Shown piece after piece: positions 3,530 through 41,773 of a stretch of 64,000 nt of DNA (position 1 is its first letter; each line of letters starts with the position of its first letter). The DNA is taken from the NCBI RefSeq assembly GCF_947500995.1, contig NZ_CANMUA010000001.1, positions 434,001-498,000 on the forward strand. Direction: 5' to 3'. Source of the DNA: an uncultured Serinicoccus sp. GTDB taxonomy: Bacteria; Actinomycetota; Actinomycetes; Actinomycetales; Dermatophilaceae. Below the pieces are notes generated by a model. That model worked only from the letters and a program-made list of their open reading frames with translations. It was not told where the DNA came from and searched no databases. Position numbers and translations under genes: made by a program.

Positions 3530-3963
3530 GCCCCACCCCCCGGGGTCGGCAGGGTCAGCGCGGACCGCGACCGCAGGTAGCCGACGACCAGCCCGGCCTG
3601 GAAGACGAGGCCGACGAGCACGAAGGCGACGACCAGGGGCACGATCTGGAGCCAGGTCGTCTGGGCCAGGGCCCAGATGACCGCTCCCAGCGCCGCCATC
3701 TGCAGCACGAAGACCCCGAACGCCCCGGCCATCGTGGTCGCCGTCGGGCCGGCCAGGACACCGCGGATGCCGACGACCCCCAGGGCGAACACCACCAGCG
3801 ACAGCGCGCTGCCGACGAGGGCGGAGACCGCGCCCCAGCCGCCCACGGCGGCCCACGTCAGCAGGGGCACGAGCACGGCCACCGGGACGCCCGCCACCAG
3901 GGCGCCGCGCATCATCGTGCGCGCCGCCGGGCGGGCGGTCGCGGGGGTCACGGTGGGGGTCAT
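3526..3963 (-). CDS. AtpI-like ATP synthase accessory membrane protein
   Basis: A 145-residue protein with four predicted membrane helices between residues 18 and 130, and no soluble domain. It is the first gene of the ATP synthase operon, where actinobacteria typically carry an AtpI-type protein. The ATG at 3963 is preferred over an earlier in-frame ATG at 4047, because the earlier one would place the predicted promoter and palindrome inside the coding region. It is translationally coupled to the next small membrane gene by ATGA. Function in c-ring assembly is inferred from the family. Confidence 0.75.
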   Translation of the reverse strand: MTPTVTPATARPAARTMMRGALVAGVPVAVLVPLLTWAAVGGWGAVSALVGSALSLVVFALGVVGIRGVLAGPTATTMAGAFGVFVLQMAALGAVIWALAQTTWLQIVPLVVAFVLVGLVFQAGLVVGYLRSRSALTLPTPGGGA

Positions 3964-7739: not shown

Positions 7740-7778
7740 CGCACGAGCCCCGGCGCCGACGGCGCCGGGGCTCGTGCG
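7740..7778. terminator. Strong bidirectional terminator hairpin
   Basis: An 18-bp perfect stem (arms 7740-7757 and 7761-7778) with a 3-base loop GAC lies between the tiny plus-strand gene and the 3' end of prmC. It can serve both convergent transcripts. There is no long T tract, as usual at this GC content. Confidence 0.8.
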
Positions 7779-38896: not shown

Positions 38897-40711
<1,815 letters not shown>

Positions 40712-40743
40712 GGGCCTCCCGACGCCCGTGACGGCCCACGCCG

Positions 40744-41310
40744 CGCGCGGTCCTGGTCAGCCTCTGGCGGTCGGTCGGGCACGGTCCTGAATCCACGACG
40801 GGTCGGTCGTGCGCGGTCGTGGACCCCAGCGGGCCATGGGTGCGCACGGTAGGGGCCGCGACGGGTCGGTCGTGCGCGGTTGTGGCCCTCAGAGGGCCAC
40901 CGGCGCACGGCCGTGGCGGTGAGCCCCTTGGCCGCCGAGCAGTGGCCCTCGGGACCGCCCCCAGCCGAGAGGGCCCCCGCAGGGTATGCCGTGCGCGGTC
41001 GTGGCCCCCAGAGGGCCAAAAGTGCGCACGGTGCTGGGCGGTAAGCCAGCCGATGCGTCGGTCGTGCGCGGTCGTGGCCCGTAGAAGGCCAAAGGTGCGC
41101 ACGGTGCTGCGCGGTAAGCCGGCCGATAGGTCTCTCGTGCGCTGTCGTGACCCTCAGAGGGCCAAAGGTGCGCACGGTGCCGAACGGTGAGCCCCCTAGC
41201 CGCTGAGCAGTGGCCCTCGGGACCGCCCCCAGCCGAGAGGGCCCCGCAGCGTATGCCGTGCGCGGTCGTGGCCCCCAGAGGGCCACCGGCGCGCACGGTC
41301 CTGGGCGGTG
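40744..41310. repeat. Array of seven degenerate palindromic repeats, no gene
   Basis: This gene-free stretch after leuA consists of copies of a 39-42-base unit. Clear copies begin at 40809, 40872, 40991, 41064, 41137 and 41258; a worn copy lies near 40744. Each begins GTGCGCGGTCGTGG, has a central hairpin TGGCCC-cag-GGGCCA or close, and ends GTGCGCACGGT, so the ends also pair (GTGCGC/GCGCAC). Intervals are 63, 119, 73, 73 and 121 bases. The spacers are related to each other, and an 80-base spacer occurs twice (40911-40990, 41179-41257), giving a higher-order period of about 266 bases. No open frame with coding character or Shine-Dalgarno was found. Confidence 0.85.
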
Positions 41311-41314
41311 CGAC

Positions 41315-41773
41315 TCAGCCGCGGCCGTCGCCGAGGAGGGTCTGACCGTCCTCGGTGACGGTCCAGAAGGGGTTGTGGGCGATCTCCCACACGTGGCCGT
41401 CGGGATCGGTGAAGACACCGGAGTAGCCACCCCAGAAGCGGGTGCTCGCGGGGCGCAGCACCGTGGCCCCCGCAGCCTCGGCGTCCTTCATCTGCTCGTC
41501 GACGTCGGCGGTGGTGGGCAGGTTGACCCCGACGACCTTGCCGCCCCAGGAGTCGCCGCTGCCCGGCGTGTCCTCGGTGTCGGAGTCGACGTCGATGCCG
41601 GAGTCGACCGCGAGGGCGGCCCGCTCCCACAGCGCGACGACCATGCCGCCGGCCTGGAAAAAGGTGATGTGGTCGGGCGAGGGACCGGGCTCCCAGCCCA
41701 GGGCCTGGTAGAAGGCGCGAGCGCGCTCGAGGTCGCTCACCCCCAGGGTGACGAGGGACACACGCTGATCCAT
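41315..41773 (-). CDS. VOC-family (glyoxalase/bleomycin-resistance fold) protein
   Basis: A 152-residue protein with two beta-alpha-beta-beta-beta halves of the VOC fold: the N-terminal VTLGVSDLERARAFYQALGW and the C-terminal GYSGVFTDPDGHVWEIAHNP, which ends with a metal-ligand Glu. Such proteins bind a metal and act as dioxygenases, isomerases or binders; the reaction cannot be told. The ATG has TAGGTT 6 bases upstream; GAGGTC between them may also act as a ribosome site. The 3' end borders the repeat array. Confidence 0.85.
   Translation of the reverse strand: MDQRVSLVTLGVSDLERARAFYQALGWEPGPSPDHITFFQAGGMVVALWERAALAVDSGIDVDSDTEDTPGSGDSWGGKVVGVNLPTTADVDEQMKDAEAAGATVLRPASTRFWGGYSGVFTDPDGHVWEIAHNPFWTVTEDGQTLLGDGRG

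What the first reader, a model, noticed from the sequence alone, without database searches (positions are those of the whole stretch)
40744..41310. Unexplained array of palindromic repeats between leuA and the VOC gene
About 560 bases without a gene are built from six clear copies plus one worn copy of a 39-42-base unit that folds on itself twice (inner TGGCCC/GGGCCA, outer GTGCGC/GCGCAC). Spacers are related, intervals are irregular (63, 119, 73, 73, 121), and an 80-base spacer is duplicated, giving a second-level period of about 266 bases. It is not a CRISPR array, is not coding, and is not adjacent to a mobile element. Possibilities are a REP/BIME-like family, a structured RNA with repeated hairpins, or a protein-binding cluster.
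Basis: seen in the sequence. Interest (0 to 1): 0.78.

Follow-up and report, generated by a model that had tools for sequence, protein, structure and literature searches.

The report
Helix-phased palindrome arrays in Serinicoccus
The repeat cluster belongs to a family of 39-base palindromes scattered between genes in this bacterium and some close relatives; neighbouring copies mostly sit a whole number of DNA-helix turns apart, which suggests that a protein, not yet identified, binds them along one face of the DNA.

Summary
The array is real: six 39-bp near-palindromes, GTGYGC-n5-TGGCCC-n5-GGGCCA-n5-GCRCAC, at 40809-41296 between convergent leuA and VOC genes. It is not a local accident: the genome holds 31 copies at 16 intergenic sites. 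Five of 31 genus genomes, this one included, carry the family heavily and share eight sites. Of 25 site groups, 13 are convergent, 11 co-directional, 1 divergent. A REP transposase (Y1_Tnp) was found in 0 of 31.

The new result is spacing. Over 88 neighbouring pairs, intervals gather at 62-64, 71-74, 80-85, 93-96, 104 and 112-114 bp: 6 to 11 turns of B-DNA. 69 of 88 lie within 1.6 bp of a multiple of 10.4 (27 expected). Thirteen site groups agree in phase (R 0.95). Distances to flanking genes and a sample of E. coli BIMEs show no such phase. One site has 84, 93 and 114 bp in three species.

Best reading: a REP-like family serving as double-stranded DNA sites for a protein that works along one helix face. 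The protein is unknown; gyrase is a candidate, and helix-phased insertion a serious rival. Nine intervals are clear exceptions, two of them (119, 121) in the window's own array.

The parts
   Evidence: 582-aa ORF; gene call; match in 31 of 31 genus genomes
40809..40847 (+). palindromic unit 1
   Evidence: 42 bits
40872..40910 (+). palindromic unit 2 (right arm 2 bp shorter, ends at 40908)
   Evidence: 38 bits
40911..40990 (+). long 80-bp spacer, first copy, with its own inner inverted repeat (read by eye)
   Evidence: (D3)
40991..41029 (+). palindromic unit 3
   Evidence: 52 bits
41064..41102 (+). palindromic unit 4
   Evidence: 40 bits
41137..41175 (+). palindromic unit 5
   Evidence: 41 bits
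41176..41257 (+). long spacer, second copy (82 bp; 61-nt core 95% identical to the first)
   Evidence: (D3)
41258..41296 (+). palindromic unit 6, best match to the family model (70.9 bits, own genome)
41315..41773 (-).
   Evidence: 152-aa ORF; gene call; no NCBIfam match at E 0.001

Best explanation
The array is one site of a dispersed REP-like family that works as double-stranded DNA. Each 39-bp near-palindrome carries four conserved 6-bp blocks on an 11-bp period, so the blocks lie on roughly one face of the helix. Neighbouring copies are mostly a whole number of helical turns apart (6 to 11), so a bound protein sits on the same face at each copy and can touch or bridge its neighbours, or wrap the DNA. 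The arrays sit at the ends of transcription units, often between converging genes, and probably serve as topological or architectural sites there. Shown: dispersal, placement, phasing, base rather than pair conservation, site sharing across species. Inferred: that a protein binds, that it acts across copies, and that the role is architectural. The protein is not identified.
For: (1) Intervals quantised near n x 10.4 bp: 69 of 88 within 1.6 bp, 27 expected. (2) 28 clusters of spacers alike in sequence; for the 25 at or below 116 bp R is 0.74-0.78, reached by 0 of 5000 jittered sets with the period free from 8 to 14. (3) 13 orthologous site groups, R 0.949, p about 8e-6, mean phase +0.4 bp; with the phase fixed at zero the best period of 8-14 is 10.4, then 10.5, close to the B-DNA repeat. 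(4) Controls not phased: distances to flanking genes, n = 138, R 0.07-0.09; by site group p 0.30 and 0.63. (5) In four shared site groups spacers have drifted to median identities of 0.62-0.71 while intervals stay within 1-3 bp apart from one of 63; one site has 84, 93 and 114 bp in three species with spacer identity 0.50, the chance level. (6) No compensatory change in the stems of 26 copies, but strong base conservation of the blocks over 142 distinct copies. (7) Orientation relative to transcription is mixed, as expected for a dyad site.
Against: No binding protein was identified and no binding data exist. 9 of 88 intervals are more than 2.6 bp off the lattice (66, 80 three times, 98, 119 twice, 120, 121), two of them in the window's own array, where only 3 of 5 intervals fit. 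With the phase left free the best period is 10.0-10.2, not 10.4, and with the phase fixed there is a second, lower peak at 9.2 (mean cosine 0.735). Of three longer intervals within arrays left out of the 88 (157, 184, 250), 184 is off the lattice. Many sites have a single copy with no neighbour to be phased with. The periodicity was noticed before it was tested. Independence of spacers cannot be proved, since old shared descent below 69% identity would be missed. Right arms are less conserved than left arms, which a symmetric site does not need, though copies were oriented by the better arm.
Confidence: 0.55

Rival explanations
1. Non-autonomous mobile element whose insertion is helix-phased: a recombinase or transposase held at an existing copy places the next copy on the same face of the DNA. 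The phasing would then record the insertion mechanism, not a function of the array.
For: Sites cluster locally: in G003 9 of 12 sites lie in one 640-kb window (p 0.0015; window size chosen after looking) and 4 pairs lie within 15 kb (p 0.0036). Copy number (1 to 10) and orientation differ at the same site between species. In two alignments the extra copy of one species comes with a spacer not seen in the others (by eye).
Against: Y1_Tnp transposase in 0 of 31 genus genomes (other transposases were not searched); eight sites are shared by all five heavy carriers, so movement to new sites is rare. In several groups spacers keep length while sequence drifts, which a past event alone would not maintain.
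Confidence: 0.22
2. BIME-2-like DNA gyrase sites: gyrase wraps the phased array to relax positive supercoils that gather at gene ends and between converging genes. This is a special case of the best explanation with the protein named, so the odds overlap.
For: Placement: 32 convergent, 34 co-directional and 1 divergent site against 6, 106 and 56 repeat-free gaps (sites shared by species are counted once per species). In E. coli gyrase prefers a motif with 10.75-bp periodic arms and cuts BIME-2 (passages of PMC6379681).
Against: A 450-kb sample of E. coli BIMEs is not helix-phased. The fixed A/T positions of the unit do not form one 10-bp series (read from the profile). There are no gyrase data for this genus in my calls.
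Confidence: 0.2
3. RNA hairpins: bidirectional terminators or 3'-end stabilisers of the flanking transcripts.
For: Placement at gene ends; five of six window copies fold better than shuffles; one more distant genus member and genomes of other genera hold 39-40 bp palindromes of the same plan with different, still pairing arms, several close behind a stop codon (by eye).
Against: No terminator-like site in 40600-41450; a run of 4 or more T within 12 nt after 0 of 320 copy ends; no compensatory change in 26 copies; helical phase of linkers should not matter to RNA; in five relatives (G001, G008, G014, G023, G027) leuA and VOC stops lie about 2 to 55 bp apart with no such element (by eye).
Confidence: 0.12
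4. Chance local tandem duplication with no wider family.
For: Spacers within one array are often near-copies of each other, so tandem duplication does take part.
Against: 31 copies at 16 sites in the genome and matches in 9 of 31 genus genomes.
Confidence: 0.01

Closest known systems
REP elements / BIMEs (GTAG- and CGTC-tagged superfamilies)
   Same: Short palindromes, intergenic, mainly between convergent or unidirectional genes, clustered at some sites (passages of PMC3733652 and PMC2817692).
   Different: No GTAG/CGTC tag, no Y1 transposase in 31 genus genomes, 31 copies rather than over 100, neighbours mostly in the same orientation (76 of 88), and whole-turn spacing that a sample of E. 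coli BIMEs lacks.
BIME-2 as gyrase sites
   Same: Arrays at gene ends; a wrapping enzyme would favour helical phase.
   Different: No sequence relation shown; E. coli REP spacing falls in a few classes that are not on a 10.4-bp lattice.
Helix-phased operator or origin arrays (lac/ara-type operators, iterons; recalled)
   Same: Binding sites at whole-turn spacing on one face.
   Different: Those stand at single regulatory loci; here many dispersed gene-end sites follow the rule with spacers that are often unrelated.
Family B, a second palindrome in genus genomes G012, G013, G016 (GAATTCGACC...GGTCGAATTC, 52 bp; found here)
   Same: Dispersed, mostly at gene ends, sits in the same leuA/VOC gap in G012 and G013.
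   Different: Unrelated sequence, mostly single copies, and strong compensatory change (0 of 500 shuffles reach its score), unlike family A.

Membership tests
REP superfamily (GTAG/CGTC) | Short palindrome in many intergenic copies | tested here: met
   31 copies at 16 intergenic sites in the own genome; fewer than the over 100 usual for REPs (abstract text)
REP superfamily (GTAG/CGTC) | Unpaired GTAG or CGTC tag at one end | tested here: not met
   142 distinct cores: flanks conserved only about 3 bases beyond the palindrome, as its own extension; no tag
REP superfamily (GTAG type) | RAYT / Y1 transposase in the genome | tested here: not met
   PF01797: 0 of 31 genus genomes; the same search rings in 5 of 14 control genomes
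BIME | Neighbouring REPs in alternating orientation | tested here: not met
   same orientation in 76 of 88 neighbouring pairs; opposite in 63 of 63 E. coli pairs
BIME-2 | Bound and cut by DNA gyrase | not testable with these tools
   no binding data
Intrinsic transcription terminator | Hairpin followed by a T-run | tested here: not met
   0 of 320 copy ends with 4 or more T in a row within 12 nt; no terminator-like site in 40600-41450
Structured RNA family | Compensatory changes in stems | tested here: not met
   26 copies of the own genome: 3 double-changed cells of 467, below shuffles (7.2)
CRISPR array | Unrelated spacers of even length between repeats | tested here: not met
   spacers within arrays are often near-copies and range from 23 to 86 bp
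CRISPR array | cas genes nearby | not tested
   no cas search was made; only direct neighbours were named
Helix-phased protein-binding array | Whole-turn spacing of sites | tested here: met
   clear exceptions 9 of 88
Helix-phased protein-binding array | A protein that binds the unit | not testable with these tools
   none identified; the MarR gene beside one array has a match in 31 of 31 genus genomes, so its presence does not track the repeat

The most novel reading that the evidence does not exclude
A chromosome-organising site system not described before: a sequence-specific protein of one Serinicoccus clade binds dispersed 39-bp dyads at gene ends, oligomerises along one DNA face across 6 to 11 turns, and so keeps spacer length, but not spacer sequence, under selection; orthologous arrays change by whole helical turns.
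Probability: 0.3. Interest if true: 0.8.

Novelty: new variant of a known kind. Interest (0 to 1): 0.62.

Why it matters
What REP-like palindromes do is a long-open question, usually argued between RNA hairpin, mobile DNA and protein site. A whole-turn rule that holds across sites with unrelated spacers points to double-stranded DNA, and it makes a sharp test possible: add 5 bp (half a turn) or 10 bp (about a full turn) between two copies and look for loss or retention of binding. In the rows shown by six paper searches (titles and abstract starts only) I saw no report of helix-phased dispersed repeats of this kind; most subscription journals are not in that library.

Tried and rejected
Y1_Tnp/RAYT as mobiliser: none in the own genome or in 31 genus genomes. 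Plasmid copies: no match of 40700-41350 in the plasmid collection. Viral copies: none to an exact pattern in viral contigs. Rfam: one sub-threshold match (E 0.6, 23.4 bits against 45.5) at 41393-41463, outside the array. Stem covariation in family A: absent, below shuffles. Shared function of neighbours: 20 of the 39 flanking proteins listed against Pfam, and 10 proteins (some the same) against NCBIfam, gave no common theme. Adjacent MarR gene as the binder: match in 31 of 31 genus genomes, so not specific to carriers. Phasing as a general BIME trait: not seen in 63 intervals from 450 kb of E. coli K-12 (R 0.30 at 10.4; 183 of 1000 jittered sets as high over all periods; repeats of one array not reduced there). 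Shared A and B sites as proof of selection at convergent gaps: only the leuA/VOC site is shared, which chance could give. Half-sites outside palindromes: 11 against 1 in a reversed control in 447 kb, perhaps worn copies, not followed.

Limits of the counts: loci in G004, G021 and G028 were taken from the matches that one search listed (its list was cut), so their copy and site numbers are lower bounds. The matrix scan allows no gaps and misses copies with indels that the covariance model finds, for example G000 C1:686668 and several in G003. A hand count on the model's positions in G003 alone gives 24 intervals below 140 bp, of which one (66) is more than 2.6 bp off the lattice. Gene calls come from a small codon-usage finder written here and trained on the window; one copy in G003 fell inside a called ORF. 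The site table counts a shared site once per species, and its background is gaps from the same repeat-bearing loci, so its Fisher p values are too small. The core-versus-spacer comparison (core 84%, other non-coding 72%, coding 89% identity over 100 pairs; core higher in 90 of 99) mixes true orthologues with other copies of the family and is only supportive. One search ended in an error while saving, after its site table was printed; one search ended in an error after the phase results, and the spacer part was rerun.

Full report
What is there. The window holds six near-palindromes of 39 bp (one 2 bp shorter) between the stop of leuA (40711) and the stop of a convergent VOC gene (41315), spaced 63, 119, 73, 73 and 121 bp. 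A unit pattern with three mismatches allowed has no match elsewhere in the 64 kb and none in 100 shuffles. The two long spacers are near-copies of each other.

It is a dispersed family. A first comparison of the array with its own genome (3.8 Mb, 45 contigs) gave 20 matches. A covariance model built from 26 copies of the own genome found 63 strand-wise matches at E up to 1, which are 31 places with strong scores plus one weak one. With gene calls from a codon-usage finder the 31 copies lie at 16 sites: 7 convergent, 9 co-directional, none divergent (leaving out the weak match at C1:300422). In the genus 9 of 31 genomes have matches at E 0.001: five heavily (G000, G003, G004, G021, G028), four with few. 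In the family 12 of 186 have matches at E 1e-4. One exact pattern over the collection of 84,980 species' genomes gave 16 stretches, all titled Serinicoccus (the own genome's records may be left out there). Matching contig lengths indicate that G004 is S. chungangensis CD08_5, G021 S. sediminis GP-T3-3 and G028 an uncultured Serinicoccus; the genus of the own genome is inferred from kinship.

Where it sits. The fetched loci fall into 25 site groups: 13 convergent, 11 co-directional, 1 divergent (hand count). In 10 of the 11 co-directional groups the copies are nearer to the 3' end of the upstream gene than to the start of the downstream gene (hand count; the exception is one G000 C6 site). Counted per species there are 32 convergent, 34 co-directional and 1 divergent sites (158 copies), against 6, 106 and 56 repeat-free gaps of 60 bp or more in the same loci (shared sites count several times and the background is local, so the Fisher p values of 4e-15 and 7e-9 are too small). 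The flanking proteins searched share no function. Eight sites are shared by all five heavy carriers, with 1 to 10 copies and with changes of orientation. In five relatives without the family at this place (G001, G008, G014, G023, G027) the stops of leuA and VOC lie about 2 to 55 bp apart, so the array is added DNA (by eye).

Anatomy. Across 142 distinct copies the conserved blocks are positions 1-6, 12-17, 23-28 and 34-39, an 11-bp period; positions 8, 10-11 and 19-21 are loose when both strands are averaged. The left arm is better conserved than the right, in part because copies were oriented that way. The stems of the 26 seed copies show no compensatory change: 3 double-changed cells of 467 against 7.2 in shuffles. 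The constraint looks to be on bases, not on pairing.

The phasing. Start-to-start intervals of neighbouring copies (88 below 140 bp, gap-free matrix scan) are 62-64 (20), 66 (1), 71-74 (16), 80-85 (25), 93-96 (13), 98 (1), 104 (2), 112-114 (3) and 119-125 (7). 69 of 88 lie within 1.6 bp of a multiple of 10.4 where 27 are expected; 9 are off by more than 2.6 bp (66, 80 three times, 98, 119 twice, 120, 121). Three longer intervals inside arrays (157, 184, 250) were left out of the 88; 157 and 250 are close to the lattice, 184 is not. Copies of one tandem event are not independent, so two reductions were made. Clustering spacers at more than 69% identity (the 99% level of 274 shuffled pairs) leaves 28 clusters; for the 25 at or below 116 bp R is 0.78 at the best period (10.15) and 0.74 at 10.45, and none of 5000 jittered sets reaches the best value with the period free between 8 and 14. 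Taking one mean phase per orthologous site group gives 13 groups with R 0.949, p about 8e-6 and a mean phase of +0.4 bp at 10.4 (intervals up to 200 bp). With the phase fixed at zero, the mean cosine is 0.921 at period 10.4 and 0.915 at 10.5, about 0.74 at 10.3 and 10.6, and 0.735 at a second peak at 9.2. Left free, the period is 10.0-10.2; forced through zero it is the B-DNA repeat.

Controls. Distances from gene ends to the nearest copy are unphased: n = 138, R at most 0.093; by site group p is 0.30 and 0.63 (25 groups each). E. coli K-12 REPs from 450 kb (108 REPs, 63 intervals) give R 0.30 at 10.4, with 183 of 1000 jittered sets as high over all periods, and neighbours are opposite in orientation in 63 of 63 pairs. 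So the rule is not seen in that sample of REP clusters.

Evolution at shared sites. Spacer sequences have drifted to median identities of 0.62 to 0.71 in groups 0, 4, 7 and 8 (shuffled pairs average 0.50), while intervals stay at 73-74, 83-85, 71-74 and 93-94 (with one of 63). In groups 2, 3 and 6, the largest arrays, all-against-all medians are 0.46-0.50, that is, mostly no recognisable relation. At the SpoU/symporter site three species have 84, 93 and 114 bp with spacer identity 0.50; at the site next to a MarR gene they have 83, 93, 95 and 96. Flanking parts of the same gaps vary more freely, for example 328, 189, 177, 216 and 249 bp beside intervals of 71 to 74, although in one group the flank is also steady (59-62 bp).

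Mechanism. RNA hairpins should not care about the helical phase of the linker, have no T-runs here (0 of 320 ends) and show no pair conservation. A protein acting along one face of double-stranded DNA explains the block period, the phase, the indifference to spacer sequence and the mixed orientation. Placement at gene ends suits a topological or architectural role. Gyrase is a candidate because its E. coli motif has arms with 10.75-bp periodicity and it cuts BIME-2 (passages of PMC6379681 seen), but nothing here shows it. A helix-phased insertion process is the strongest rival: sites cluster locally in G003 (9 of 12 in 640 kb, p 0.0015, window chosen after looking) and orientation changes between species. 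Inheritance of a few old length classes would weaken the count of independent events; the species-to-species changes by whole turns speak against it but do not exclude it.

Known kinds. The closest are REP elements and BIMEs; placement and form agree (passages of PMC3733652 and PMC2817692), but tag, transposase and alternating orientation were tested and are missing. It looks like a REP family and works, on this reading, like a phased binding array, but is not filed as a member of the tagged superfamilies. The one passage of the RepRanger paper that I saw (PMC12306157) names three other Actinomycetota; the word Serinicoccus does not occur in its main text.

Side finding. At the same leuA/VOC gap G012 and G013 carry an unrelated 52-bp palindrome, family B, with 11 exact sites in G012, 8 in G013, 1 in G016 and none in the other 28 genomes. 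Its stems show strong compensatory change (46 cells of 552 against 21.6 in shuffles; covariation score reached by 0 of 500; relatedness of the copies can inflate this test). It therefore looks like a hairpin-type element; template-switch correction of quasi-palindromes could produce the same pattern (recalled). Related lineages thus fill the same gap with different palindromes, one constrained in bases and one in pairing.

Noticed in passing
G012, G013, G016 (L108-L127): Family B, a 52-bp dispersed palindrome GAATTCGACC...GCCATGGC...GGTCGAATTC, mostly at gene ends, with strong compensatory changes in its arms; it occupies the leuA/VOC gap in G012 and G013.
   Followed up: partly
L025 (G030), L026 (G151), L027 (G046), L029 (G075) around 1501-1548: A more distant genus member and genomes of other genera carry 39-40 bp palindromes of the same plan with different but still pairing arms, several a few tens of bases after a stop codon (by eye).
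   Followed up: partly
G003 single contig, dnaA at 588 bp: 9 of 12 family-A sites lie at 130-770 kb, on one side of dnaA.
   Followed up: partly
L095 (G000 C9) at 3603 and 11932: Two copies lie where similarity to four relatives starts or stops, as if rearrangements had used these gaps.
   Followed up: partly
window 7740-7778: Perfect 18-bp stem hairpin with a 3-base loop between co-directional genes, perhaps an ordinary terminator.
   Followed up: no
L029 343-410 (G075): A perfect 68-bp palindrome with no loop.
   Followed up: no
L087:4087-4125 (G012) and L086:4231-4269 (G016): One family-A copy each in genomes otherwise free of the family; the site shares one flanking gene with G000 C6:207717 and may be older than the expansion in the five carriers.
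   Followed up: partly
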